Assembly (NCBI GenBank): GCA_009469675.1
Contig: SSSZ01000111.1
Location: 1 to 47,982, forward strand
DNA from: Azonexaceae bacterium
GTDB taxonomy: Bacteria > Pseudomonadota > Gammaproteobacteria > Burkholderiales > Rhodocyclaceae
Direction: 5' to 3'
DNA: 47,982 bases
The position numbers and the translations under genes were made by a program. The stretch's first letter is position 1. Every line of letters begins with the position of its first letter. The notes under the pieces are model-generated. The model made no database searches and was not told where the DNA came from. It saw only the letters and a list, made by a program, of their open reading frames with translations. Shown here one piece after another: positions 35,318-47,982 of the stretch.

Positions 35318-36289
35318 ATGGCGCAAAACGAGCGCTTGGTCAAAATGCAGCGCCTGCTGCGCCAACGGGGGGGTGTCGCTTTCGGCGAAATGCTGCAGGC
35401 GTTGGAGGTATCCCGTTCTACCGTGTTCCGGGATTTGACCTACCTCAGCGACCGCATCGGGGTGCCCTGGCTGCGCGACGCCGAAACGGGCCGTTATCGC
35501 CTCGATGAGTGCTCCGACCGGGCAGAACTGCCAGGGCTGTGGTTTTCGGCGCAAGAGATCCATGCGCTCCTGACCATGCAACGCTTGCTCGCCAGTCTCG
35601 ATCCCGGGGGGCTGCTCGGCCCCCACCTCGACCCTCTGAAGGATCGTCTCGCCGGGCTGCTTGAAAGCGGTCCCCACCCGGCGGCCGACGTCGCCCGGCG
35701 CATCCATATCCTGACCGCCGCCGCCCGCCGCTACGCCCCGGAACATTTTCAGGTTGTGGCCGCCGCCTTGCTCGAGCGTCGGCGGTTGTGCATCGAATAC
35801 GCCGCCCGCAGCCGCCAAGGCGTTACACGTCGAGAGGTGTCGCCTCTGCGGCTGACCCATTACCGCGACAACTGGTATCTCGATGCCTGGTGCCACCTTC
35901 GGCACGAACTGCGGAGCTTTTCCGTCGACGCGATGCAGACCGCCAAGGCCTTGCCGGAGCCGGCCCACGACGTCGCCGAGCCTGAACTCGCGGCAGCGCT
36001 CGATTCGGGCTACGGCATCTTCTCCGGCCCGGCCAATCGGCGGGCCACCCTGCGCTTTACCCCGGCCCGTGCCCGCTGGGTCGCAGTCGAATGCTGGCAT
36101 ACCGACCAGCACGGAAGCTTTCTGGAGGATGGGAGCTATCAACTGAGCGTTCCCTATAGCGATGACCCGGAATTGGTCATGGATATCCTCAAATACGGTC
36201 CCGACTGCGAGGTCGAGGCGCCGGCGGCGTTGCGCCGAAAGGTCCGGGAACTCCTGCGGGCTGCAGCCGCGAGGTACGACCATGAGTGA
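35318..36289 (+). CDS. WYL-domain transcriptional regulator of the CRISPR locus
   Basis: This 323-residue protein has an N-terminal DeoR-type winged helix (LVKMQRLLRQRGGVAFGEML, then EVSRSTVFRDLTYLS) and a WYL ligand-binding domain (ERRRLCIEYAAR through REVSPLRLTHYRDNWYLDAW), followed by the WCX tail to the C-terminus. WYL regulators beside CRISPR and other defence systems usually sense nucleic acid or nucleotide ligands and repress the locus. The gene ends eight bases inside cas3, so the two are translated together. No RNA ligand can be deduced from sequence. Confidence 0.9.
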   Translation: MAQNERLVKMQRLLRQRGGVAFGEMLQALEVSRSTVFRDLTYLSDRIGVPWLRDAETGRYRLDECSDRAELPGLWFSAQEIHALLTMQRLLASLDPGGLLGPHLDPLKDRLAGLLESGPHPAADVARRIHILTAAARRYAPEHFQVVAAALLERRRLCIEYAARSRQGVTRREVSPLRLTHYRDNWYLDAWCHLRHELRSFSVDAMQTAKALPEPAHDVAEPELAAALDSGYGIFSGPANRRATLRFTPARARWVAVECWHTDQHGSFLEDGSYQLSVPYSDDPELVMDILKYGPDCEVEAPAALRRKVRELLRAAAARYDHE

Positions 36290-38684
36290 AAGCCCGGACT
36301 CGCGGGACGGGCGATATCTTGCCCACATTCGCCGTGACGGCAAGGAAGCTCTTCCACACCGACTGGAAGAGCACCTGGAGGAGGTTTCGGCACTTGCAGC
36401 CGCCTTTGCCATTACCTTCGGCGCCGCCCCCTGGGCCGCCCTGGCCGGACTGTGGCACGATCTCGGCAAGTATCGGCATGGGTTTCAGCGTTACATCCGC
36501 CAATGCAACGACCTCGATGCCCATATCGAAGGGCGTATTGCCGGTCCGGCAAAAAGCCACTCCGCGGCCGGCGCCCTGTGGGCGATGGAGCATCTGGCGC
36601 AGCGCGACCGGCAGGGCGGCAAAGCGATGGCCCGAGTGCTGGCCTATCTGATCGCCGGGCATCATGCCGGGCTGGGGGACTGGCAGGACGATCTGGCGGT
36701 TCGTTTCGCCAAAGAGGACAGTCAACGCGAATTGGCCGAAGCCAAGGCCGCCGACATTCCGCAACACATTCTCGAACCCCGCGGGGAGTTGCCGGATCTG
36801 GCTACCCTCAAAGCCCACGTGGAAAATCCCAAGGCACTTGAAACCTACATCCCCGGACGTTTCGCCCTCTGGGTGCGCATGCTGTTCTCCTGCCTGGTGG
36901 ATGCGGATTTTCTCGACACCGAGCGTTTCATGGCGCTGGACAAGGCCGAAGGACGCGGCGGCTTTCTAAGTCTGGCCGAGATGGACATACGGCTGGCCGA
37001 TCATCAGGAGAAGATGGCCGGCGAGGTTGCCCGGCGGGGCGAAGCCGATTCGGCGGTGAACCGCCAAAGAAGACATGTTTTGCACTGCTGCCTGGCCAAG
37101 GCCGCCGAAGTGCCGGGCTTCTTCAGCCTCACCGTGCCGACCGGCGGCGGCAAGACCTTGTCCGGCCTCGCCTTCGCGCTGCGCCATGCGGTGCTCCACC
37201 AGCGACGGCGGGTCATCTACGCCATCCCCTACACCAGCATCATCGACCAAACCGCTGCCATCTTTCGCGCTATCTTCGGCGACGAGAACGTCGTCGAGCA
37301 CCACAGCAGCGTCGAGGTTGATCCCAAAGAGGAAACCCATCGCTCGCGGCTCGCCTGTGAAAACTGGGACGCGCCGCTCATCGTGACGACCAATGTGCAA
37401 CTGCTGGAGAGCCTCTTCGCCCGCCGCACGTCGCGCTGCCGCAAGCTGCACAACCTGGTGGGGAGCGTCATTGTGCTCGACGAGGCACAGCTATTGCCGG
37501 TGGACTTCCTGCAACCCGTCGTCGACGTGCTTCGCCTGCTGGTCCAGGACTACGGCGTCAGTATCGTGCTTTGCACCGCCACCCAGCCAACGCTGGAAAG
37601 CCGCATCGGCTTCGATCAGGCACGGGGCCTACGCAGCTTTGCCGCCAACGAAGTCCGCGAAATCATCGACGACGTGCCGGCGCTATACCAGGCGCTGCGC
37701 CGCGTGCGCGTCCAGCGCCCGGCAGACCTGACGCCCTTGCCCGACTGGCCGGCGCTTGCCCCGCAGCTTGCCGCCCATGAAGCCGTGCTCGCCATAGTCA
37801 GCCGCCGCGCCGATGCCCGGGATCTCTATCGCGCCTTGGGGCGGCACGGTTCCGGCGAGGGTGGGTTTTGGCACCTTTCCGGCCTGATGTGCGCCCGCCA
37901 TCGCAGCCACGTCATCAGCCAGATCAAGGCGGCGCTGACCGATCGCCGGCTGGCGCTCGCCCGCGGCGAAGCCGCAAGGCCGGTTCGCGTCGTTTCCACG
38001 CAACTCGTCGAAGCTGGGGTCGATATCGACTTTCCCGTGGTCTACCGGGCCCTCGCCGGACTCGACTCCATCGCCCAGGCCGCCGGGCGGTGCAACCGCG
38101 AGGGGCGGCTGGAAGAAGGGCAGGTTTACGTCTTTGTTCCCCCCAAACCAGCCCCGGCGGGCTTGCTGCGCCAAGCGGAAGGCGCGACCCGCGTGCAGTG
38201 GAGCATGCTGCCGCCGGATGCCGACCCGCTGGCCGTCGCGCATTTCGCCAGCTACTTCCAGCGCCTCTACGGCGATGCCCAACTCGACAGGCATGGCATC
38301 GTCGATCTGCTGCGGGTTGCCGGGCAAGGTGAGGTCAATTTCAGGACGGCTGCCGAAAAATTCCGCCTCATTGATGAAAAGGATGGCGCCACCGTCTTCG
38401 TCCGCTATCGCCGCACCAAGGACGACGACGAAATCGACATCCTTCTCGCCAAGTTGCAGACGGAAGGCCTGCAGCGCTGGTTGCTGCGCAAGCTGCAAGG
38501 CTATGGGGTCAGCGTCTACGCCAACGATTTGCGGCGCCTGCTCGACAGCCGCGACGTCGTGCCGCTGGGGGACGACTTCCCCGGTATCTACATCCAGTCG
38601 CCGGAGAACGACGTGCTCTACGACCCGGTCCTTGGCCTGAATGTGGATGGTGCGCCGGGTGATCCGGGAAGTTTCGTACAGTGA
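36282..38684 (+). CDS. cas3: Type I-C Cas3 helicase-nuclease
   Basis: Cas3 is recruited by target-bound Cascade and unwinds and degrades DNA. The 800-residue protein has an HD nuclease domain first: H31 in EEHLEEV, H59-D60 in LWHDLGKYRHGF, H93 in KSHSAAGALW, H127-H128 in IAGHHAG. The superfamily-2 helicase follows: TVPTGGGKTLSG (Lys about 291), VLDEAQLLP (D400-Q403), CTATQPTLE and the arginine-finger motif QAAGRCNREGR. The ATG at 36282 has GAGG upstream and overlaps the WYL gene. About 390 bases separate it from cas5c, a wide gap for a type I-C operon; that gap holds the crRNA-like gene and a small ORF. Confidence 0.95.
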   Translation: MSESPDSRDGRYLAHIRRDGKEALPHRLEEHLEEVSALAAAFAITFGAAPWAALAGLWHDLGKYRHGFQRYIRQCNDLDAHIEGRIAGPAKSHSAAGALWAMEHLAQRDRQGGKAMARVLAYLIAGHHAGLGDWQDDLAVRFAKEDSQRELAEAKAADIPQHILEPRGELPDLATLKAHVENPKALETYIPGRFALWVRMLFSCLVDADFLDTERFMALDKAEGRGGFLSLAEMDIRLADHQEKMAGEVARRGEADSAVNRQRRHVLHCCLAKAAEVPGFFSLTVPTGGGKTLSGLAFALRHAVLHQRRRVIYAIPYTSIIDQTAAIFRAIFGDENVVEHHSSVEVDPKEETHRSRLACENWDAPLIVTTNVQLLESLFARRTSRCRKLHNLVGSVIVLDEAQLLPVDFLQPVVDVLRLLVQDYGVSIVLCTATQPTLESRIGFDQARGLRSFAANEVREIIDDVPALYQALRRVRVQRPADLTPLPDWPALAPQLAAHEAVLAIVSRRADARDLYRALGRHGSGEGGFWHLSGLMCARHRSHVISQIKAALTDRRLALARGEAARPVRVVSTQLVEAGVDIDFPVVYRALAGLDSIAQAAGRCNREGRLEEGQVYVFVPPKPAPAGLLRQAEGATRVQWSMLPPDADPLAVAHFASYFQRLYGDAQLDRHGIVDLLRVAGQGEVNFRTAAEKFRLIDEKDGATVFVRYRRTKDDDEIDILLAKLQTEGLQRWLLRKLQGYGVSVYANDLRRLLDSRDVVPLGDDFPGIYIQSPENDVLYDPVLGLNVDGAPGDPGSFVQ

Positions 38685-38707
38685 CAGGGCCGATGAATAC
38701 ATTGGAA

Positions 38708-38795
38708 AGGGCCGGGACAAGCCCGGCCCTCTGATGCAGTGATTCAACGGACAACGTTGACCATTAAGTTTCAATCCGCGCTGGTATTCAGCGAC
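38708..38795 (-). ncRNA. Predicted single-repeat crRNA-like regulator (CreR/CreA type)
   Basis: On the minus strand, 38795-38768 reads GTCGCTG-AATAC-CAGCG then CGGATTGAAAC. This is a 28-nt degenerate type I-C repeat: canonical GTCGC start, a hairpin (CGCTG/CAGCG) and an 11-nt tail like the type I-C 5' handle. The next 37 nt (38767-38731) form a pseudo-spacer beginning TTAATGGT, ended by a strong hairpin, AGGGCCGGG/CCCGGCCCT (38708-38730), and TTTCC. An extended -10 box lies directly upstream. Pseudo-spacer bases 1-5 and 7-8 match a site with a TTC PAM over the cas5c-side -10 box; base 6, which is flipped out in type I complexes, does not. Partial pairing should allow Cascade binding without destruction. 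CreR and CreA RNAs of this kind are known from other systems; this instance is a prediction. Confidence 0.72.
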
Positions 38796-38801
38796 GATCG
38801 A

Positions 38802-38810
38802 ATGATAACA
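38802..38810 (-). promoter_or_regulatory. Extended -10 promoter of the crRNA-like gene
   Basis: The minus strand reads TG-T-TATCAT, an extended -10 element. Seven bases after it transcription would begin at about 38795, exactly the first base of the degenerate repeat. There is no good -35, which extended -10 promoters do not need. Confidence 0.55.
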
Positions 38811-38820
38811 TGCGAACCAA

Positions 38821-38858
38821 TGCCGATTTATATGCAACGACAACTATACTATTAAGAA
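38821..38858 (+). promoter_or_regulatory. cas5c-side promoter overlapped by the pseudo-spacer target
   Basis: TATACT at 38845-38850 is a near-consensus -10 box reading toward the small ORF and cas5c. On the minus strand GAA at 38856-38858 gives a TTC PAM, and bases 38855 downward read TTAATAGT, then GTTGTC and GTTG. The pseudo-spacer reads TTAATGGT, then GTTGTC and GTTG with single-base offsets. The target therefore covers the -10 box, where Cascade binding would block polymerase. Confidence 0.65.
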
Positions 38859-38901
38859 GTTGATTTTAGTTGGCAGAACTTCCTGGCCAGGAGCTTTGCT
38901 A

Positions 38902-39054
38902 ATGAACAATCTGATTGGATTGCTGCGCGAGTTGCGCTTGATGAAAGATCAGCCAACCCATCGTTTTTTTGCGGTGTGGCTGTTGGTTTTGTTGCCTCGT
39001 GGAGTTGGTTGGGGTGTTCTGCTTTATCTGCTGCACGGTTGGTTTCCCAGATAG
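38902..39054 (+). CDS. Predicted 50-residue small membrane protein between cas3 and cas5c
   Basis: An ATG at 38902 with AGGAG nine bases upstream opens a 51-codon frame. The product starts MNNLIGLLRELRLMKDQPTH, then has a hydrophobic segment FFAVWLLVLLPRGVGWGVLL and ends YLLHGWFPR. This is a basic amphipathic start plus one membrane span, the shape of many small toxins and also of harmless small proteins. Codons are AT-richer than in the neighbours (TTG, GTT, ATT, final AGA), suggesting foreign origin. It is the first ORF after the TATACT promoter and ends 20 bases before cas5c. I know no type I-C cas gene like it. Under a CreTA-like reading it would be the repressed toxin. Confidence 0.5.
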   Translation: MNNLIGLLRELRLMKDQPTHRFFAVWLLVLLPRGVGWGVLLYLLHGWFPR

Positions 39055-39074
39055 GCATTATCGAAGAGGGGTTA

Positions 39075-39728
39075 ATGAACAATTTCTGTCTTGAAGTCTC
39101 AGGCGACTTCGCCTGTTTTACGCGTCCGGAGATGAAGGTCGAGCGCGTGTCTTACGACGTGATGACGCCCTCGGCGGCGCGGGCCGTGTTCGAGGCGATC
39201 CTTTGGAAGCCGGCAATTCGCTGGGAGGTGCGCAAGATCGAGGTCTTAAACCCGATCCGCTGGATCAGTGTGCGGCGTAACGAGGTGGCTTCCAAGGCCT
39301 CGGTGCGGAACGCCCAGGCGGCGATGGGGGCGGGCCGCGGCAATCTGGCGCTGTACGTCGAGGAGGACCGCCAGCAGCGGGCCGGGCTGTTTTTGCGCGA
39401 CGTGGCCTACCGCATCCATGCCGATCTCGTGCCGGTGGACGAGGATGCGCTCAAGAACCCGGCCAAGTATCGGGAAATGTTCCAGCGCCGGGCGGAAAAA
39501 GGGCAGTGCGTCAATCAGCCCTACCTCGGCTGCCGCGAGTTCGCCGCCCGGTTCCAACTGGCGGCAGCCGTGGCAAACGCCAAAGCGCCCATCGCCGAAA
39601 CCCGCGATCTCGGCTGGATGCTCTACGACATGGATTTTTCTGCCGCGGAAGACCCCAAACCGAAATTTTTCCGTGCCCAGATGCAATCCGGGGTCGTTGA
39701 TCTTTCTGCTGCGCAGGTGATGGGATGA
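39075..39728 (+). CDS. cas5c: Cas5c (Cas5d), crRNA-processing Cascade subunit
   Basis: In type I-C systems Cas5c replaces Cas6: it cuts the repeat at the base of the hairpin, leaving an 11-nt 5' handle that it then holds in Cascade. The 217-residue protein opens with FCLEVSGDFACFTRPEMKVE, continues with SYDVMTPSAARAVFEAILW and carries NPIRWISVRRNEVASKA, the Cas5d pattern. The ATG at 39075 with GAGGGG upstream was chosen over a longer open frame from 38976 because conservation begins there. The stop overlaps cas8c by four bases. Confidence 0.94.
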   Translation: MNNFCLEVSGDFACFTRPEMKVERVSYDVMTPSAARAVFEAILWKPAIRWEVRKIEVLNPIRWISVRRNEVASKASVRNAQAAMGAGRGNLALYVEEDRQQRAGLFLRDVAYRIHADLVPVDEDALKNPAKYREMFQRRAEKGQCVNQPYLGCREFAARFQLAAAVANAKAPIAETRDLGWMLYDMDFSAAEDPKPKFFRAQMQSGVVDLSAAQVMG

Positions 39729-41485
39729 TTCTGCAAGCCCTGTACGACTACTACCAGCGCAAGGCCGACGATCCCGATCCGGCCCGCCGCCTGCCGCGGT
39801 TCGGCTTCGAGGACAAGGAAATTCCCTTCGTCGTCGAGTTGACGGCGGAAGGCAAGCCCTTGGGTATTGCCGATACCCGCCAGCCCGACGGCAAGAAGAA
39901 GGTGGCGCGGCGCTATCTCGTGCCCAAGGGCGTCAAGCGTTCTTCCGGCGTGGCGGCCAATCTGCTGTGGGATACCGCCGAGTATGTCTTGGGCGTAGAC
40001 ACACGGGGCAAGCCGGAGCGCGTGGCCGAGCAGCACGCGGCTTTTCGTCAGCGCCTGCAGGATTTGCCGGAAGCAGCGCGGGCCGATGCGGGGTTGCGGG
40101 CCATCGAGGCGTTCTACGCTGCCGGGGGAAGCGCCTTGCTGGTCGATGACCCGAGCTGGCCGGAAATTCTCGAAACCAACCCCAATCTGACGTTCCGGCT
40201 TTACCCCGAGAGTGATTTGATCTGCCAGCGGCCCGCGGTGGCCGGTGGCTTCGGAATAGGGGATGAGGAGGGCGGTCGGGCCGCCGGTGGTATTTGTCTC
40301 GTCACCGGTGAGGCGGGCGAAATCGAGCGATTACACACCGCCGTCAAAGGCGTTTGGGGGGCGCAAAGCTCTGGTGCTTCGCTAGTATCGTTCAACCTGG
40401 ATGCCTTTACGTCTTTCAACAAGGCCCAGGGTGACAATGCGCCGGTGAGTTCAGCCGCTGCCTTTGCCTACACCACGGCGCTCAATCATCTGCTCGACCG
40501 CAATTCACGCCAGCGGTTGCAGGTGGGCGACGCCTCCACGGTTTTTTGGGCGCAAAAGGGCGGCGCGACGATCGAAGAGGGGTTCGGCGATGTCTTTGGC
40601 GAACCCGCCCATGACGATCCGGACGCCCGCACCGATCGTATCCGCAGCCTCCTGGGCGCCGTGCAAAGCGGCCAGTTCGACGGTGGGGAAGGGCAGGACA
40701 GGTTCTTCGTTCTCGGCCTGGCCCCCAATGCCGCCCGCCTCGCCGTGCGTTTCTGGCATGCCGGTACGGTTGGAGAAGTCGGCCGAAGGATCGGCGACTG
40801 GTTCGAGGATTTGCGCTTGGTTCGCGGGCCAAACGATGCGGAATTTCCCAGCCTGTTCCGGCTGCTGACGGCGTGCGCGGCGCAGCGCAAGGCCGATAAC
40901 GTGCCGCCCAACCTCGGTGGCGACATCATGCGCGCCGTGCTCTCCGGTGGCGTTTTCCCCATGAGTTGGTTCAACGCGGCGGTGCAGCGCTGCCGGGCCG
41001 AACAGAACGTCAATTACCTGCGCGCCGCCGCCATCAAGGCCTGCCTTAACCGGCTGGCGCGCCAATCCGATGCTTCCATCGCCATAAAGGAGTTCAGTTC
41101 CATGCTTGACCTTAACGATGTCCGCCCGGCCTATCGTCTGGGCCGCCTGTTCGCCGCCCTGGAAAAAATCCAGGAAGAAGCCAGCCCCAGCCTCAATGCT
41201 ACCATCCGCGAACGCTATTACGGCGCGGCTTCCAGTACCCCGGTCAGCGTGTTCACGACACTCCTGCGTCTCAAGCAGCACCACCTCGCCAAACTGAGCA
41301 ACCGTGGGCGGGCAGTCAATTTCGAGCGCTTGATCGGCGAAATCATGGGCGGGTTGAGCGATTTTCCCAAACATCTCAGCCTGCCGGAGCAGGGGCATTT
41401 CGCGTTGGGCTACTACCACCAGCGCCAGGACTTTTTCAGCAAATCCAGCCAATCCGACGAATCCACCCAGGGAGAATCCAAATGA
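39725..41485 (+). CDS. cas8c: Cas8c (Csd1), Cascade large subunit
   Basis: Cas8c reads the PAM and helps open the target DNA in type I-C Cascade. The 586-residue protein begins [18 protein letters not shown] and has the Csd1 features [17 protein letters not shown], then [20 protein letters not shown] in the centre and VFWAQKG. It overlaps cas5c and cas7c by ATGA, so the three effector genes form one coupled unit. The last 127 codons can be translated separately as Cas11c (see 41102). Confidence 0.95.
41102..41485 (+). CDS. cas11c: Cas11c small subunit from an internal start within cas8c
   Basis: Inside cas8c, AAAGGAG lies nine bases ahead of an in-frame ATG at codon 460 ([20 protein letters not shown]). 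Translation from it yields a 127-residue, mostly helical protein ending at the cas8c stop. Type I-C systems are known to make Cas11c in this way, and the small subunit lines the Cascade belly and stabilises the R-loop. The spacing and strength of the internal ribosome site strongly suggest the same here. Confidence 0.8.
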
Positions 41486-42363
41486 GCCTTTCCAACCGCT
41501 ACGATTTTGTTCTCGTTTTCGATGTCCGTGACGGCAACCCCAATGGCGACCCCGACGCCGGCAATCTGCCGCGCCTGGACGCCGAATCCGGCCACGGACT
41601 GGTAACCGATGTGTCGCTCAAGCGTAAGGTGCGCAATTTCGTCGGTCTCATCAAAGGTCAAACCCCCCCTTTCGACATTTATGTGAAGGAAAAGGCCATC
41701 CTCAACCAGACCCATGAGAAGGCTTACGTTGCTGTGGGGGCCGAGGAAGAATTGAAGGGCGACAAGAAGCGCAAGGGTAGCGGCGATACCGTGGACAAGG
41801 CGCGGCAATGGATGTGCGCCAATTTCTTCGATGTGCGGACCTTTGGCGCGGTGATGTCCACCGGGGTGAACTGCGGCCAAGTACGCGGCCCGGTGCAACT
41901 GACCTTCGCCCGCTCAGTCAATCCCATCGTCGCCCAGGAACATTCCATCACCCGCATGGCGGTGGCGACGGAAGCCGAGGCCGAGAAGCAGCAGGGGGAC
42001 AACCGAACCATGGGTCGCAAGCACACCGTGCCTTACGGCGTCTATGTCGCCCATGGGTTCGTTTCGTCCTTCCTTGCCAAACAGACCGGTTTTGGCGAGG
42101 CAGACCTGGAACTGCTCTGGCAGGCTCTGGAACACATGTTCGAGCATGACCGTTCGGCGGCGCGGGGCGAAATGGCGACTCGCGGTCTCTATATCTTCAA
42201 GCACGATTCCGAACTCGGCAACGCCCATGCCCATGCCCTGTTCGAGCGCATCAAGGTCGAGCGTAGGGCCGGTGTCGAGGTGGCGCGCAGCTTTGCCGAC
42301 TACGCCGTATCGGTAAATAAGGCCGGCTTGCCCGGCGGCGTCAGCTTGATCGAGCGTATCTGA
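41482..42363 (+). CDS. cas7c: Cas7c (Csd2), Cascade backbone subunit
   Basis: Cas7c forms the helical filament along the crRNA spacer. The 293-residue protein has the Csd2 start [20 protein letters not shown], then the [12 protein letters not shown] segment, [20 protein letters not shown], and [26 protein letters not shown] precedes the ATG, which overlaps the cas8c stop. In compact type I-C operons cas4 follows closely, but here 621 bases intervene, occupied by an antisense toxin-antitoxin module. Confidence 0.95.
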
Positions 42364-42374
42364 TCGGCTCAATC

Positions 42375-42672
42375 CTATCGCCGCCCCGCCCAATAGCCGG
42401 GGTGGCGGCGCTGGTGGGCTACGGCATGGATTGCGATGGTGTTGGCGGAAATGCGATAGATCAGGACGTAAGGAAAATGTTTGAACGAGAAGGTGCGCAG
42501 TCGTTTCGAGATGGCTTTCCCGATTTCGGGGTTATCGCTCGCTCAAGCGCTGGCGCGTATGGATTGCGTCCTGCAGGAATGCCTCGGCAACCCGGTCGCT
42601 GGCGTGTTCAGCGTAGTAGTCGACGGCGGCATTCAATTCTACCTGCGCCGACGCGAGAAATACGACCTTCAG
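42375..42672 (-). pseudogene. Frameshifted RelE/ParE-type toxin
   Basis: The first part, from a CTG at 42672 overlapping the antitoxin stop as CTGA, reads KVVFLASAQVELNAAVDYYA, then AEAFLQDAIHTRQRLSER, and stops at 42532-42534. The following frame continues as NPEIGKAISKRLRTFSFKHF, then PYVLIYRISANTIAIHAVAH and ends at 42375 with QRRHPGYWAGRR. Joined, these give one ordinary ParE-family toxin of about 97 residues, so a shift between about 42532 and 42550 broke the gene. The start codon is CTG, where coupled toxins usually have ATG, possibly a second lesion. Confidence 0.8.
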
Positions 42673-42911
42673 GCCACCGGGCGATTAACGATTCTGGCGC
42701 GTGCCAAGGTAATGGCTTCGTCGAAATCGATGGCCGCGGCCTTTTCCCGCTCGTACGCGTCGGCCCGGCGCTCGGCTTCTTCCACCCAGGCGGCGAGGAT
42801 CTCGTCGTCTTCCTCCAGGCTGAGCAGCAGACGCTCGGCCAGTTTGGTCCGTTCGCTCAAAGAAAATTGCAACGCGGCGGCTTCGATGTCTTCGAGAGGT
42901 GAATTGGTCAT
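42669..42911 (-). CDS. Addiction-module antitoxin (short, acidic) within the cas operon
   Basis: The 80-residue protein matches the short antitoxins paired with ParE-type toxins: QFSLSERTKLAERLLLSLEE then WVEEAERRADAYEREKAAAI. GGAGG sits seven bases ahead of the ATG at 42911. It appears intact while its toxin partner is frameshifted, as expected if the toxin was lost first. It is antisense to the cas genes, between cas7c and cas4, so the module could have split the operon into an effector half and an adaptation half. Confidence 0.85.
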   Translation of the reverse strand: MTNSPLEDIEAAALQFSLSERTKLAERLLLSLEEDDEILAAWVEEAERRADAYEREKAAAIDFDEAITLARARIVNRPVA

Positions 42912-42984: not shown

Positions 42985-43617
42985 ATGGCCGAAGAAGCGC
43001 CCGATCCTATTCCGCTATCAGCGCTTCAGCACTGGGCTTATTGTCCCCGTCAATGCGCCCTGATCCATGTCGAGCAGGTATTCGCCGAAAACATCTTCAC
43101 TCAACGGGGGCAGGCCTTGCACAAGCGGGTAGACGATCCGGGCTTCGAAATTCGGGGCGGCTTGCGGGTTGAGCGGGCGCTGCCGTTGTTCAGCGACCGC
43201 CTGGGCCTCGTCGGCAAAGCCGACGTGGTGGAATTTTTGCCCGACGGAACCCCCTATCCCGTCGAATACAAACATGGGTCGCGCCACAAGCGGCCGGATA
43301 TCGCGGCCTGCGACGACATCCAGCTTGCCGCCCAGGCCATTTGCCTGGAAGAAATGTTCCACCGCCCGGTCCCGGAGGGCGCCCTCTACTACGCCACCTC
43401 CCGCCGTCGGCGAATCGTCACCATTGACCTCGTCCTTCGCGAGAAGCTGGCGCTGGCCGTTGCGGCGGTGAAGGCCTTGCTCATCGGCGGCAACATGCCG
43501 CGACCCTTGAATGACGAGCGCTGCCAGGCCTGCTCCCTGGTCGATCTTTGCCAACCCCGAGCGCTCACCGCGGCCAAAGGACGGGAAACCGCACTGGCGG
43601 GCCTCTTCGATCCCTAA
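42985..43617 (+). CDS. cas4: Cas4 exonuclease
   Basis: Cas4 joins Cas1-Cas2 to choose PAM-flanked prespacers and trim their 3' ends. The 210-residue protein has the iron-sulfur cysteines C20 (AYCPRQCAL), C180, C183 and C189 (DERCQACSLVDLC) and the RecB-like nuclease residues H46, D80 (GKADVVEF), E94 and K96 (VEYKHG). It lies 621 bases after cas7c because of the antisense module and just upstream of cas1, separated by seven bases. Its ribosome site is weak, and a promoter between 42912 and 42984 may be needed for cas4-cas1-cas2. Confidence 0.95.
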   Translation: MAEEAPDPIPLSALQHWAYCPRQCALIHVEQVFAENIFTQRGQALHKRVDDPGFEIRGGLRVERALPLFSDRLGLVGKADVVEFLPDGTPYPVEYKHGSRHKRPDIAACDDIQLAAQAICLEEMFHRPVPEGALYYATSRRRRIVTIDLVLREKLALAVAAVKALLIGGNMPRPLNDERCQACSLVDLCQPRALTAAKGRETALAGLFDP

Positions 43618-43624
43618 TCCTGAT

Positions 43625-44653
43625 ATGCAAATCCTCAATACCCTCTACCTCACCACGCCGGAAAGCTACGTCCACCTGGACAACGATACCCTGCGGCTAG
43701 ATATCGAGCGCGAAACCCGCTTGCGGGTACCCCTCCACCACCTGGGGGCAGTCGTCTGCTTCGGGCACATTGCGGTCTCGCTGCCGCTCATGCATCGACT
43801 GGCGGACGAGGGCATTGCCCTTGTTCTCCTCGATGCCAACGGCCGCTTCAAGGCGAGGCTGGAAGGCGCCGTATCAGGCAACGTGTTGTTGCGCCAGGCG
43901 CAGCACCGGCTGGCTGGCGACCCGGCGTTTGCCTTGAACCTTGCCCGCAACTGCGTGGCCGGCAAAGTGCGCAACTGCCGCCACGTCTTGCAAAGAGGCG
44001 CCCGGGAGGCCAAAGGTGCCGACGACGAGGCCGTTCTTTCCCGTGGGGCTGACGATCTTGCCGCCACCTTGCGCGCCCTGCCCGGGGCCGGCGATCTCGA
44101 CACGCTGCGAGGTCTGGAGGGCGAGGCGGCACGGCAGTATTTCGGGGCCATCAATCGCCTGATCCGGCCCCCGGCCCGCCAAGGCTTTTATATGGACGGA
44201 CGTAGCCGGCGCCCGCCCCGGGATCGGGTCAATGCGCTGCTTTCGTTTTTGTACTCGCTGCTCATGACCGATTGCCGTTCGGCACTTGAAGCCGCCGGAC
44301 TCGATCCCCAGGTCGGTTTCCTGCATGCGGTGCGACCGGGGCGGCCCGCACTGGCCTTGGATCTCATGGAGGAGTTTCGCTTCTTTGCCGATCGCCTGGC
44401 ACTTTCGCTCATCAATCGCGGCCAGGTCGGCCCCGCTGACTTTGTCGAACGGGAAGGCGGCGCCGTCCTGCTCGAAGGCGATGCACGCAAGGCCGTACTG
44501 GTCGCCTACCAGGAACGCAAGCAGGAAAACCTCTCCCACCCGCTGCTTGCCGAGGCTGTTCCTTTCGGCCTCCTGCCCCATATCCAGGCACGGCTGATGG
44601 GGCGCGCTCTGCGAGGCGATACTGCGGAATATCTCCCTTTTTTGGTGCGCTGA
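43625..44653 (+). CDS. cas1: Cas1 integrase, type I-C
   Basis: Cas1 catalyses spacer integration at the leader-repeat junction. The 342-residue protein has the metal residues E165 ([11 protein letters not shown]), H234 (FLHAVRPGR) and D246 ([12 protein letters not shown]). The ATG at 43625, [19 protein letters not shown], is the family's usual start, though the frame is open upstream. It overlaps cas2 by one base (TGATG). The array shows a copying error that this enzyme would have made (spacer 10). Confidence 0.96.
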
Positions 44654-44943
44654 TGCTGGTCATCGTGTGCTACGACGTCAATACCGAAACCCGCGAAGGG
44701 CGCCGCCGCTTGCGTCGCGTTGCCAGGCTCTGCGAAGGAATAGGCCAACGGGTACAGAAATCCGTTTTCGAATGCCAGATCGACCGCGCCCGCTTCGAGG
44801 CACTGGAGCGCGACCTGGTCGCAGAAATCAAGGCGGAAGAAGACAACCTGCGCTTTTATCGCATTGCCGAACTACGGGGCTACGAAGTGCGCGAACATGG
44901 CCGGTTCCGTGCCACCGATTTTGATGGGCCGCTGGTCCTCTGA
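44653..44943 (+). CDS. cas2: Cas2, type I-C
   Basis: Cas2 dimers bridge two Cas1 dimers in the integrase and set spacer length. The 96-residue protein has the ferredoxin-like pattern [20 protein letters not shown], then [20 protein letters not shown] and [16 protein letters not shown]. The ATG overlaps the cas1 stop. It is the last cas gene before the leader, so the array's young end should be the cas2 side. Confidence 0.95.
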
Positions 44944-45124
44944 TTCGGCGCGAACCCCAAGCATCGGCGAAAACCCGTCAGGTTCGCGTTTGGCAAAAGC
45001 CACTGAAATAATTGATATTTATTGCGAGGCCTTTGCAGCAGTAAGATATCAACCGCCAACGGCAAGAGAGGTTCGCGCAACGCGACGATTTTGTGCCGTT
45101 ACTTCCGGTAGTTACGGAAGATGA
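44944..45124 (+). promoter_or_regulatory. CRISPR leader
   Basis: This 181-base, AT-richer stretch links cas2 to the first repeat and has no gene. An inverted pair, CGCGAACC (44949-44956) and GGTTCGCG (44981-44988), recurs as a third copy, GGTTCGCG, at 45070-45077. A hairpin CTTCCG/CGGAAG (45102-45120) ends five bases before repeat 1 and may mark the integration anchor. Transcription of the array should start here and run on the plus strand, but no single promoter is clear. Confidence 0.8.
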
Positions 45125-47982
45125 GCATCGCCCCCCGGAAACGGGGGGCGTGGGTTGAAACCTGATGTCGTACGTTCGATGGTTGCAGCGGAGCGGGCAG
45201 CGCCCCCCGGAAACGGGGGGCGTGGGTTGAAACTCGGCGTGATGACGCGCGGCGAAATGCTGGCGATGTAGCATCGCCCCCCGGAAACGGGGGGCGTGGG
45301 TTGAAACGGAATTGAAGCAGTCCTACTTCGCGCAGGCGTGCGCATCGCCCCCCGGAAACGGGGGGCGTGGGTTGAAACACCTTCACCGGCGCCCCGGACG
45401 GCACCTACACCGCGCATCGCCCCCCGGAAACGGGGGGCGTGGGTTGAAACTGCAGCTGATAGACGCCGGTCGAGACCAGTGCCATGCATCGCCCCCCGGA
45501 AACGGGGGGCGTGGGTTGAAACTCATGAGGTCGGCGGCGACGGCGTCGGCGATCATGGCATCGCCCCCCGGAAACGGGGGGCGTGGGTTGAAACGGCGAC
45601 TTCGTAGGGCGATGGGCGCCGGAAGACGAGCATCGCCCCCCGGAAACGGGGGGCGTGGGTTGAAACTCCCCGGCCAGCCAGGATAAAGCCGCCGTAGCCC
45701 TCGCATCGCCCCCCGGAAACGGGGGGCGTGGGTTGAAACCTGGCGGTTCGCAGGCTAATGCCGTTTCGCCAGAGCATCGCCCCCCGGAAACGGGGGGCGT
45801 GGGTTGAAACGAGATGCTCGTGTTGTCGGTAGTTTCTTCGGTCCGGTCGGCACGCGCATCGCCCCCCGGAAACGGGGGGCGTGGGTTGAAACGAGATGCT
45901 CGTCCTCGACGACGAGCAGATCGAAGGCATCGCCCCCCGGAAACGGGGGGCGTGGGTTGAAACTCGACGTACTTGATTGTCATGGCGTCACCTTGAGGCG
46001 CATCGCCCCCCGGAAACGGGGGGCGTGGGTTGAAACGACCACTTGCCCGACGAGGTGCCGTTTACCGCATCGCATCGCCCCCCGGAAACGGGGGGCGTGG
46101 GTTGAAACGAGCAGGGCATGGGGTCGGTATCCGGCAACGTCCTGCATCGCCCCCCGGAAACGGGGGGCGTGGGTTGAAACACCCACCCAGTAGGTGCCGG
46201 TCTGGCTGATCTGGCGGGCATCGCCCCCCGGAAACGGGGGGCGTGGGTTGAAACAGCTATATCATATAGGTACATTCGATGATGAAACCGGCATCGCCCC
46301 CCGGAAACGGGGGGCGTGGGTTGAAACGCCTGCTGCGTCCGCTCATCGGCCGCATCCTGAGGCATCGCCCCCCGGAAACGGGGGGCGTGGGTTGAAACCT
46401 AAGGATTCCATTCGTTTTTTCGCGTGTGGAGAAGCATCGCCCCCCGGAAACGGGGGGCGTGGGTTGAAACTAACTCCGCCTTACCTAACATCCGACAAGG
46501 AACAGCATCGCCCCCCGGAAACGGGGGGCGTGGGTTGAAACTTTATGCGGCAATCTTTTTCTTCGCCGGCGTGGGGCATCGCCCCCCGGAAACGGGGGGC
46601 GTGGGTTGAAACGGCGACTTTTCGGGGGGGGATACAACGTTGTCCATTGGCATCGCCCCCCGGAAACGGGGGGCGGGGGTTGAAACGAGATGTCCCAGTT
46701 CGCCACAGATTGCAGGATTCCGCATCGCCCCCCGGAAACGGGGGGCGTGGGTTGAAACATCGATATTCGCGGGATCCGAGACAAAATCAACGAGCATCGC
46801 CCCCCGGAAACGGGGGGCGTGGGTTGAAACTAAATCCGCCTTACCTAACATCCGACAAGGAACACGGCATCGCCCCCCGGAAACGGGGGGCGTGGGTTGA
46901 AACCACCCGTAAGCCCCGCCGCCGACGTCTGGGCAACCGCGCATCGCCCCCCGGAAACGGGGGGCGTGGGTTGAAACCGGTGGGAATGCACGACCGGCCC
47001 GGCTGGTTGTCGGCATCGCCCCCCGGAAACGGGGGGCGTGGGTTGAAACCTCATGGGCGGCGACGTTCTTGGGGTTGATACGGGCATCGCCCCCCGGAAA
47101 CGGGGGGCGTGGGTTGAAACTGGTCGGCGGCGCGGACGGCGGCGATCACCTCCGGCATCGCCCCCCGGAAACGGGGGGCGTGGGTTGAAACCTCATGGTG
47201 ACGCCCTTCCAGGTCACATCCTGGGGCATCGCCCCCCGGAAACGGGGGGCGTGGGTTGAAACGGCCTGGGTTACGGCTGGCATGGTTTTTCCTTCTGCAT
47301 CGCCCCCCGGAAACGGGGGGCGTGGGTTGAAACAAATAGAACTTGATGGTGTCTTCGCCTGATTGCATGGCATCGCCCCCCGGAAACGGGGGGCGTGGGT
47401 TGAAACTCGCGGGCGTAGAAGGTGCCCGCGCCATCGATGGCATCGCCCCCCGGAAACGGGGGGCGTGGGTTGAAACATGAAGGCGACGATGCGGGCCGGC
47501 GAGTCTTCCGACGCATCGCCCCCCGGAAACGGGGGGCGTGGGTTGAAACTGCCCCCCTTCCAGGACTTGACGCCTTCCGCGAAGGCATCGCCCCCCGGAA
47601 ACGGGGGGCGTGGGTTGAAACAAATATGAAGAGGATCTCGAAGAAGAGAGCTACACCGCATCGCCCCCCGGAAACGGGGGGCGTGGGTTGAAACTTGGTG
47701 GCTGGATCCCCATAGATCACCTGTAGTCGCATCGCCCCCCGGAAACGGGGGGCGTGGGTTGAAACCGGCGCAGCGGCGGTGGCGCGCAGGAATTCATAGC
47801 ATCGCCCCCCGGAAACGGGGGGCGTGGGTTGAAACACCACCGACGTGCTGGTCAACAACACCGGCACCGGCATCGCCCCCCGGAAACGGGGGGCGTGGGT
47901 TGAAACATCGCGCTGATGTTGAGGAATGCGCTGGTGCTCCAGGTGCATCGCCCCCCGGAAACGGGGGGCGTGGGTTGAAACA
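45125..47982 (+). CRISPR. Type I-C CRISPR array, 40 repeats in view, continues past the window
   Basis: The 37-nt repeat begins GCATCGCCCCCCGG and ends GCGTGGGTTGAAAC. CGCCCCCCG pairs with CGGGGGGCG over a GAAA tetraloop, leaving an 11-nt 3' tail that becomes the crRNA handle after Cas5c cutting. I count 40 repeats (first 45125-45161, last 47945-47981) and 39 complete spacers of 33-38 nt, except spacer 10 (45811-45855), which is 45 nt. Repeat 2 has G for T at position 4, and repeat 22 (46650) has G for T at position 27, the first handle base. Spacers 19 and 24 are near-identical. The GAAAC ends and adjacent cas2 place the leader on the left, so low-numbered spacers are youngest. Apparent ORFs in the array are repeat translations. 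Confidence 0.98.

What the first reader, a model, noticed from the sequence alone, without database searches (positions are those of the whole stretch)
38708..38858. A one-repeat crRNA gene in the cas3-cas5c gap appears aimed at the cas operon's own promoter
Seen directly: on the minus strand, an extended -10 box (38810-38802) puts transcription start at the first base of a degenerate type I-C repeat (38795-38768). A 37-nt pseudo-spacer and a strong hairpin follow. The pseudo-spacer starts TTAATGGT. On the same strand at 38858 a TTC PAM is followed by TTAATAGT, with the single mismatch at position 6. Farther on both share GTTGTC and GTTG with one-base offsets. The matched site covers the TATACT -10 box that reads into cas5c. 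Known: type I-C uses a TTC PAM, type I guides do not pair every sixth base, and CreR/CreA RNAs elsewhere use seed-only matches to repress without cleavage. Inference: Cascade loaded with this RNA represses its own operon. I have not seen such a gene described inside a type I-C operon between cas3 and cas5c, but could not search.
Basis: partly seen in the sequence, partly recalled or inferred. Interest (0 to 1): 0.95.

Follow-up and report, generated by a model that had tools for sequence, protein, structure and literature searches.

The report
CRISPR-guarded small membrane toxin, type I-C
Between two CRISPR genes of an environmental bacterium lies a tiny gene that would make a guide RNA, whose seed matches the promoter region of an overlooked 50-residue, likely membrane-bound protein and of the CRISPR genes behind it, and the same guide-target match recurs with different letters in related bacteria; the CRISPR complex is therefore predicted to switch off this likely toxin and its own genes, so that losing or blocking CRISPR would release the toxin.

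Summary
Confirmed. A minus-strand one-repeat guide gene (38709-38810) lies in the cas3-cas5c gap; its seed matches a TTC-flanked site (38858-38819) over the promoter region reading into the cas operon. PAM plus seed occurs once in the 3.39-Mb genome. Of 128 distinct cas5c loci, 20 carry a minus-strand repeat tail whose own guide finds a TTC site matching at positions 1-5, 7 and 8 in the same gap (18 different seeds; swapped guides 4 of 506); five more have a plus-strand version. Positions 6, 12 and 18 match no more than chance, as type I pairing predicts. Its family (135 database proteins, own included) is present in 17 of 25 loci with the minus-strand repeat and in 1 of 103 without. Four plus-strand loci have two other small hydrophobic protein families there. 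Best reading: a type I-C CreTA-like module whose guide likely represses a small membrane toxin and the cas operon together. Guide and target are strongly supported by sequence; RNA, repression and toxicity are untested. Nearest published case: the type I-E CreTA of Citrobacter rodentium.

The parts
36282..38684 (+). cas3 (Cas3c); ends where the gap begins
   Evidence: PADLOC Cas3c 1e-207
38709..38729 (-). G+C-rich hairpin GGGCCGGG-loop-CCCGGCCC followed by TTT: likely 3' end of the guide RNA
   Evidence: read directly; fold z -4.35 for the whole RNA. The strict terminator scan does not list it
38730..38767 (-). guide (pseudo-spacer), starts TTAATGGT
38768..38795 (-). standalone type I-C-like repeat: hairpin 38793-38779 and 11-nt tail CGGATTGAAAC 38778-38768; its stem letters differ from the array repeat
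38802..38810 (-). extended -10-like box TGTTATCAT of the guide gene (candidate)
   Evidence: sequence only; not reported by the strict promoter scan
38856..38858 (-). TTC PAM
   Evidence: the only PAM+seed site in the genome held
38819..38855 (-). target (protospacer); positions 1-5, 7, 8 and 11 pair with the guide
38845..38870 (+). promoter region of the small-ORF/cas5c transcript: -10 candidates TATACT 38845-38850 and, by comparison with relatives, TTTAGT 38865-38870
   Evidence: no strict match
38902..39054 (+). 50-aa small hydrophobic protein gene, likely membrane toxin (MNNLIGLLRELRLMKDQPTHRFFAVWLLVLLPRGVGWGVLLYLLHGWFPR); stop 20 nt before cas5c ATG, no terminator found between
39075..39728 (+). 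cas5c
   Evidence: PADLOC Cas5c 3.9e-71
39725..41485 (+). cas8c
   Evidence: PADLOC 6e-176
41482..42363 (+). cas7c
   Evidence: PADLOC 9.7e-128
42985..44943 (+). cas4, cas1, cas2
   Evidence: PADLOC Cas4c 3.5e-76, Cas1c 5.7e-149, Cas2c 2e-35
45124..47948 (+). CRISPR array, repeat GCATCGCCCCCCGGAAACGGGGGGCGTGGGTTGAAAC (end approximate)
   Evidence: 40 copies in the widest family listed

Best explanation
The gap holds what is likely a CreTA-like module of a type I-C system: a one-repeat guide RNA is predicted to load Cascade (Cas5c-Cas8c-Cas7c) and steer it by seed pairing to the promoter of a conserved 50-aa, likely membrane-bound protein, a likely toxin, and of the cas5c operon behind it, and would keep both low. 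Shown by sequence: repeat tail, hairpin, guide, TTC PAM, seed match, joint change of seed and target across loci, a coding and conserved small hydrophobic protein as first gene behind the target, and cas5c 20 nt behind it. Inferred: that the RNA is made and trimmed by Cas5c; that the short match lets Cascade block RNA polymerase without calling Cas3; that the protein sits in the membrane and harms the cell when released. Predicted result: if Cascade is lost, blocked by an anti-CRISPR or drawn away by crRNAs, the promoter opens, Cascade is topped up, and if that fails the small protein accumulates and stops the cell. The same guide would thus act as a Cas-level regulator (CreR-like) and as an antitoxin (CreA-like).
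For: Guide and target: 20 of 128 distinct cas5c loci have TTC plus a full match at positions 1-5, 7 and 8 to their own guide, 18 different seeds. Own 19 of 23, swapped 4 of 506 (all between loci with the same seed), shuffled 14 of 46,000. Positions not used for selection also pair (10: 16/19, 11: 15/19, 14: 16/19; 9, 13 and 15 less so, 10-12/19), while 6, 12 and 18 do not (4, 3, 5 of 19). A scan that ignores the repeat finds 18 same-strand pairs in 128 loci, 10 of them directly behind a repeat tail, and 18 opposite-strand pairs, 3 behind a tail. The repeat hairpin is kept with different stem letters (mean 4.4 against 2.2 pairs at random places; 17 of 25 have four or more). PAM+seed is unique in the own genome. 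Small protein: 135 database proteins at E <= 0.01, own included; in 27 codons around its motif synonymous differences far exceed non-synonymous in all 8 pairs tested (window vs L013 0.68 vs 0.10 per site); a hydrophobic segment in each of 22 proteins tested (mean hydropathy 1.5-3.4); with the minus-strand repeat in 17 of 25 loci, without it in 1 of 103 (Fisher 3e-14, relatedness not corrected). Four plus-strand loci (L099, L105, L141, L142) have small hydrophobic ORFs under the same kind of targeted promoter, forming two other families (57% and 50% identity within pairs) that the first family's profile does not recognise. Precedents: C. rodentium I-E, 96-bp toxin ORF between cas3 and casA with a divergent CreA (PMC12055562, section 13 read); seed 1-5 and 7-11 with TTC, and a one-repeat-plus-terminator CreA (PMC8501985, passages); type I-C Cascade at a TTC site over a -10 box represses transcription (PMC10865793, passages).
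Against: Toxicity and membrane insertion are untested, and nothing in Pfam, PADLOC, NCBIfam or PDB identifies the protein. A family member stands alone outside any CRISPR locus (L122), and L044 keeps the ORF with no repeat tail on either strand, which a strongly toxic gene should not tolerate unless its promoter is gone. Three loci keep guide and target without the ORF (L014, L016, L064). The profile behind the 17-of-25 count was grown from ORFs first seen mostly in repeat-bearing loci, so it leans that way. The window's own match is among the shorter ones: 8 of 10 seed positions, as in L004, L006 and L013, against 9-10 elsewhere. L017 and L018 have a repeat tail but no target; L148 matches 10 of 10 but behind GTT; L021 and L095 match 9 of 10. 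Strict promoter scan empty.
Confidence: 0.62

Rival explanations
1. CreR only: the guide with Cascade represses the cas operon to hold Cascade at a set level, and the small protein is a harmless accessory (for example a membrane anchor or partner of Cascade or Cas3) that happens to be first in the operon.
For: In L014, L016 and L064 the target lies 27-56 nt before cas5c with no small ORF of the family; in the window 20 nt and no terminator separate the ORF from cas5c; the N-terminal motif LRELRLM..Q....RFYA is more conserved than a generic membrane peptide would seem to need (inference); L044 keeps the ORF without the guide and L122 is solitary.
Against: Small hydrophobic ORFs of two other families sit under the targeted promoter in the plus-strand loci, where the guide gene and a hairpin (seen by eye) lie between them and cas5c (L099, L105, L141, L142), which fits a repressed toxin better than an accessory. 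110 of 128 I-C loci lack a protein of this family by profile. The I-E precedent with the same layout is a translated toxin (PMC12055562).
Confidence: 0.27
2. RNA toxin: as in haloarchaeal and Acinetobacter CreTA, the toxic part is the leader RNA or its hairpin, and the ORF is incidental.
For: CreT toxins described there are RNAs (PMC8501985, passages; PMC10097628, abstract start in a listing only). Some leaders carry strong hairpins before the ORF (L004 z -4.6, L049 -2.2, L086 -2.4).
Against: The ORF is under strong purifying selection at the protein level (8 pairs) and is shared across many genera; leader hairpins reach z below -2 in only 3 of 18 loci, window z -0.9.
Confidence: 0.06
3. A decayed CRISPR repeat or a Racr-like decoy with no target, the match being chance.
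For: The window's seed match is short and promoter scores are weak.
Against: Joint change of guide and target in 20 of 128 loci and the controls; unique PAM+seed in the genome; kept hairpins. Racrs are solitary repeat units of phages and plasmids (PMC10651486, passages), not cas-locus genes with a promoter target.
Confidence: 0.03

Closest known systems
Citrobacter rodentium CreTA, type I-E (PMC12055562; section 13 read)
   Same: Gap between cas3 and the first Cascade gene; divergent one-repeat guide; PAM-flanked target over the promoter; small ORF.
   Different: Type I-E, 96-bp ORF for which the authors found no annotated relative; here type I-C, a family of 135 database proteins, ORF 20 nt before cas5c, many loci with joint change of guide and target. 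Toxicity was shown there, not here.
Haloarchaeal CreTA, type I-B (PMC8501985; passages and section 14)
   Same: TTC PAM, seed 1-5 and 7-11, one repeat plus terminator in H. hispanica, promoter target.
   Different: The toxin there is an RNA that ties up a rare tRNA.
CreR, cas-regulating RNA (passages of PMC12737573, and PMC13131331, which names types I-B, I-E and V-A; the original paper was not held or not found)
   Same: Guide represses the cas operon promoter; L014, L016 and L064 look like this.
   Different: No coupled toxin in CreR; not named for type I-C in the passages seen.
CrePA (PMC12737573 section 10)
   Same: Protein toxin under a guide-repressed promoter.
   Different: CreP typically has a KilA-N domain; the 50-aa window protein has no Pfam match.
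Standalone crRNA-like elements catalogued by Shmakov et al. 2023 (not held; title seen in a reference list; content recalled)
   Same: Standalone repeats with partial matches to cas promoters, mostly in type I (recalled).
   Different: I could not check whether type I-C cases or this small protein are in it.
Type I-C CRISPRi from Neisseria lactamica (PMC10865793, passages)
   Same: Type I-C Cascade at a TTC site over a -10 element represses transcription.
   Different: Engineered, designed 35-nt spacer, no cas3.

Membership tests
CreTA | repeat-like plus spacer-like guide gene near cas genes | tested here: met
CreTA | PAM-flanked seed match (1-5, 7-11) at the toxin promoter | tested here: met
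   TTC; window 8 of 10, the other 19 minus-strand loci 8-10 of 10; joint change of seed and target
CreTA | the repressed gene is a toxin | not testable with these tools
   only indirect: small hydrophobic protein family under the targeted promoter, other such families in L099, L105, L141, L142
CreTA | repression needs Cascade | not testable with these tools
   no expression data
CreR | guide targets the cas operon promoter | tested here: met
   cas5c 20 nt behind the small ORF, no terminator found; direct in L014, L016, L064
CreR | no toxin coupled to the guide | tested here: inconclusive
   a small ORF lies between target and cas5c in the window; toxicity unknown
CrePA | KilA-N-type protein toxin | tested here: not met
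   no Pfam match for the window protein
Racr (RNA anti-CRISPR) | solitary repeat on a phage or plasmid, no target needed | tested here: not met
   lies in the cas locus and has a target that changes with the guide
Ordinary CRISPR mini-array | a second repeat after the spacer | tested here: not met
   a hairpin follows the guide instead
Type I-C CRISPR-Cas | cas3, cas5c, cas8c, cas7c, cas4, cas1, cas2 in order | tested here: met

The most novel reading that the evidence does not exclude
Type I-C Cascade uses one guide to hold down, on one transcript, both a membrane-acting peptide toxin and its own effector genes: a self-topping-up circuit with a built-in dead-man's switch. At least three unrelated small membrane proteins have been recruited to guide-held promoters in different lineages, which would make cas-linked membrane toxins a widespread and largely unseen layer of type I-C immunity.
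Probability: 0.5. Interest if true: 0.82.

Novelty: new variant of a known kind. Interest (0 to 1): 0.76.

Why it matters
Guide-repressed toxins and cas regulators are described for types I-B, I-E, I-F and V-A in the passages and listings I saw; none of those was for type I-C, although a catalogue that I could not open may hold some. Here a set of naturally co-varying guide-target pairs gives a ready test of how little pairing Cascade needs to repress without cleaving, and a conserved small protein family gives a concrete toxin candidate. It would also explain why some type I-C cas3-cas5c gaps are 156-480 nt long while most are under 65 nt, and it warns that deleting a single Cascade gene in such strains may look harmful for reasons unrelated to immunity.

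Tried and rejected
Phage or plasmid origin of the small protein: tblastn of P0106 and P0036 in phages and of P0106 in plasmids gave nothing (the low-complexity filter makes this weak); viral contigs with A3 gave 17 pattern hits, none confirmed. PHROG 6632, a phage family of unknown function, matches six of the eight proteins tested weakly (E 9.5e-6 to 0.06): a hint of phage relatives that I did not resolve. Its two marginal hits in 41 relatives (G020 inside a 591-aa frame, G015 a 42-residue stretch that does not resemble the family by eye) add nothing.

Conserved 5'-leader hairpin as a translation switch: present by eye in several loci, but only L004, L049 and L086 reach z below -2 of 18 folded; not claimed.

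Rfam has no match up to E 1 in 38500-39300. The small-protein profile in 398 phylum-wide genomes gave the window as the only clear hit, with five marginal ones at 0.003-0.01; in 399 genomes of the order it gave six clear hits (window plus five, one of them outside CRISPR) and three marginal ones, and it missed the member in G077 (L096) that one search found, so its sensitivity is limited. AlphaFold2 gives helices 2-14, 21-33 and 37-46 at mean pLDDT 68, too weak for a fold search, which I did not run.

Rows dropped before counts: of 139 cas5c entries, 6 duplicates, 3 distant Cas5 hits (L152-L154), L022 (58 nt upstream) and, after the call, L085 (copy of L071), leaving 128. One search kept the best 80 of 327 relatives, so counts are for relatives of this Cas5c and not for all type I-C. 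Slips of mine: loci on the minus strand had to be turned, and one search was run before I noticed, so its negatives for those are void (redone); L138 was read from a wrong start; one search repeats the counts with L138 mended and they are unchanged (gaps measured 100 instead of 99). L033's gap of 9 is a misreading of an overlapping frame.

Full report
What is in the window. The locus is a complete type I-C system: cas3 36282-38684, cas5c 39075-39728, cas8c 39725-41485, cas7c 41482-42363, cas4, cas1, cas2 to 44943 (PADLOC) and an array of about 40 repeats from 45124. A WYL-domain regulator precedes cas3 (35318-36289). The 390-nt gap between cas3 and cas5c holds, on the minus strand, an extended -10-like box, a standalone repeat-like hairpin with the tail CGGATTGAAAC, a 38-nt guide and a strong G+C hairpin. 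The RNA folds at -38.9 kcal/mol, better than all 200 shuffles (z -4.35). Upstream on the same strand, TTC at 38858 is followed by TTAATAGT against the guide's TTAATGGT. That PAM plus seed (TTCTTAATNGT) occurs once in the 3.39 Mb held of the genome, here.

Is the match real? One match of seven bases would prove little, so I compared loci. One search gave 80 named cas5c loci (best 80 of 327); two searches gave cas5c hits in 46 of 399 genomes of the order and 37 of 369 of the class, 30 loci kept each time. After removing copies, three distant Cas5 hits and one locus cut short, 128 distinct loci remain (minus L085; recounted with one mis-set start mended). Twenty-five have the exact repeat tail on the minus strand within 600 nt of cas5c. 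In 20 of these the locus's own guide finds a TTC site matching at positions 1-5, 7 and 8 in the same gap, on the same strand, with 18 different seeds. L021 and L095 match 9 of the 10 positions 1-5 and 7-11; L148 matches 10 of 10 but behind GTT; L017 and L018 have none. In the control, on 23 loci chosen for the tail, own guides hit in 19, guides swapped between loci in 4 of 506 pairs (all four between loci sharing a seed), and base-shuffled gaps in 14 of 46,000.

The pairing has the type I signature. Over 19 pairs, positions that I had not required still match (9: 12, 10: 16, 11: 15, 13: 11, 14: 16, 15: 10), while positions 6, 12 and 18 match in 4, 3 and 5, about what chance gives. The published CreA seed is 1-5 and 7-11 with positions 6 and 12 free (PMC8501985, passages). 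A scan that knows nothing of repeats, asking only for TTC plus 10 seed positions repeated within 500 nt, gave 18 same-strand pairs in 128 loci, 10 of them directly behind a repeat tail and 8 not, and 18 opposite-strand pairs, 3 behind a tail and 15 not. The repeat hairpin is kept with different stem letters: mean 4.4 pairs against 2.2 at random positions; 17 of 25 have four or more against 18% of random positions, and L017 has none.

A second layout. The blind scan and one search revealed guides on the plus strand between a small ORF and cas5c, with the target at the promoter region of that ORF (L099, L105, L141, L142), and one on the plus strand without a small ORF (L133; L136 is similar with a 9-of-10 match). 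L041 and L107 have a plus-strand tail without a target. Of the 102 loci without a minus-strand tail or family ORF, 100 had a measurable cas3-cas5c gap: 78 are 64 nt or shorter. Of the nine over 250 nt, seven (286-440 nt) proved to carry a plus-strand or slightly altered element (L099, L105, L133, L136, L141, L142; L098 with a 9-of-10 match), and two (L019, L130) are probably misread cas3 ends.

The promoter region under the target does not open directly on cas5c. At 38902-39054 lies a 50-aa ORF whose stop is 20 nt before the cas5c start, with no terminator found between. Relatives have a similar ORF in the same place. The family has 135 database proteins at E <= 0.01, the window's own among them (7,991 candidates scored); in 81 aligned members E10 is invariant and L11, R12, R21 and F22 nearly so. 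Each of 22 proteins tested, the two plus-strand families among them, has a hydrophobic segment (17-residue mean hydropathy 1.5-3.4; L141 is lowest), and in 27 codons around the motif synonymous differences far exceed non-synonymous in all 8 pairs tested (window vs L013 0.68 vs 0.10 per site; L006 vs L013 0.78 vs 0.06). It has no Pfam or NCBIfam assignment. By profile it is present in 17 of 25 loci with the minus-strand repeat and in 1 of 103 without (Fisher 3e-14, not corrected for relatedness; the profile was grown from ORFs mostly first seen beside repeats, but a gap under 65 nt cannot hold the ORF in any case). L049 and L069 have shorter, divergent ORFs that the profile does not recognise. 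L061's frame is interrupted and L069's is cut short. The plus-strand loci carry small hydrophobic ORFs of two other families: L099 and L105 are 57% identical, L141 and L142 50% over 34 residues, and neither is recognised by the first family's profile.

Reading. A target over the promoter region, a small hydrophobic protein as the first gene, different proteins in the same role and a patchy distribution (31 of 127 rows, 24 changes on the Cas5c tree, 19 forced by well-supported branches; shuffled labels need 28 on average and 12 of 500 are as low, so the element is only weakly clustered; clean presence or absence between close relatives such as L013 and L012) are what a guarded toxin would look like. 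The closest published case has the same anatomy in type I-E: in Citrobacter rodentium a 96-bp ORF between cas3 and casA, with a divergent CreA aimed at its promoter, is a toxin that must be translated (PMC12055562, section 13 read). Because cas5c follows without a terminator, the same guide should also set the level of Cascade, as CreR does (PMC12737573, PMC13131331, passages). That type I-C Cascade can repress from a TTC site over a -10 box is shown with an engineered system (PMC10865793, passages). Loci without a family ORF (L014, L016, L064; target 27-56 nt from cas5c) look like pure self-repression, so the two functions can be separated.

What speaks against it. No expression, binding or toxicity data exist here. 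L044 keeps the ORF without guide or target, and L122 has a relative outside any CRISPR locus. The window's own pairing is one of the shortest (8 of 10, shared with L004, L006 and L013); in this clade the guide and target share further words such as GTTGTC out of register by one or two bases, as if the guide had started as a copy of the target and slipped (inference).

Novelty. Nine searches of the open-paper library brought up no type I-C CreTA or CreR in the listings or in the passages that I opened. The most relevant catalogue (Shmakov et al. 2023) and the original CreR, first CreTA and CrePA papers were not held or not found, so I claim only that I did not find it. I file it as a new variant of a known kind: CreTA/CreR logic in type I-C, with a small hydrophobic protein family ahead of the effector genes.

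Noticed in passing
window 42669-42911 (-), between cas7c and cas4: An 80-aa Unstab_antitox (PF09720) addiction-module gene on the minus strand inside the cas operon, E 4.3e-12; no partner toxin was looked for beyond listing ORFs.
   Followed up: partly
L122 about 1483-1617 (G167 contig 8): A member of the small protein family outside any CRISPR locus, beside a 233-aa gene with no Pfam match and, by eye, peroxiredoxin-like and Smr-like genes.
   Followed up: partly
L099, L105, L141, L142, upstream of cas5: Plus-strand guide genes behind two other families of small hydrophobic proteins, target at the ORF promoter region.
   Followed up: partly
L098, 40-470 nt upstream of cas5: A repeat-like tail GTGAATTGAAAC with a 9-of-10 TTC target and a small ORF that reads by eye like a lipoprotein signal; possibly yet another guarded gene.
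   Followed up: no
L004, L049, L086 leaders of the small ORF: Stable hairpins just before the start codon (z -4.6, -2.2, -2.4 of 18 folded); not general.
   Followed up: partly
window 35318-36289 (+): WYL/WCX-domain transcription factor directly upstream of cas3, a possible second regulator of the locus.
   Followed up: no
PHROG 6632 against P0001, P0003, P0016, P0036, P0063, P0106: Weak matches (E 9.5e-6 to 0.06) to a phage protein family of unknown function, a hint of phage relatives of the small protein.
   Followed up: partly
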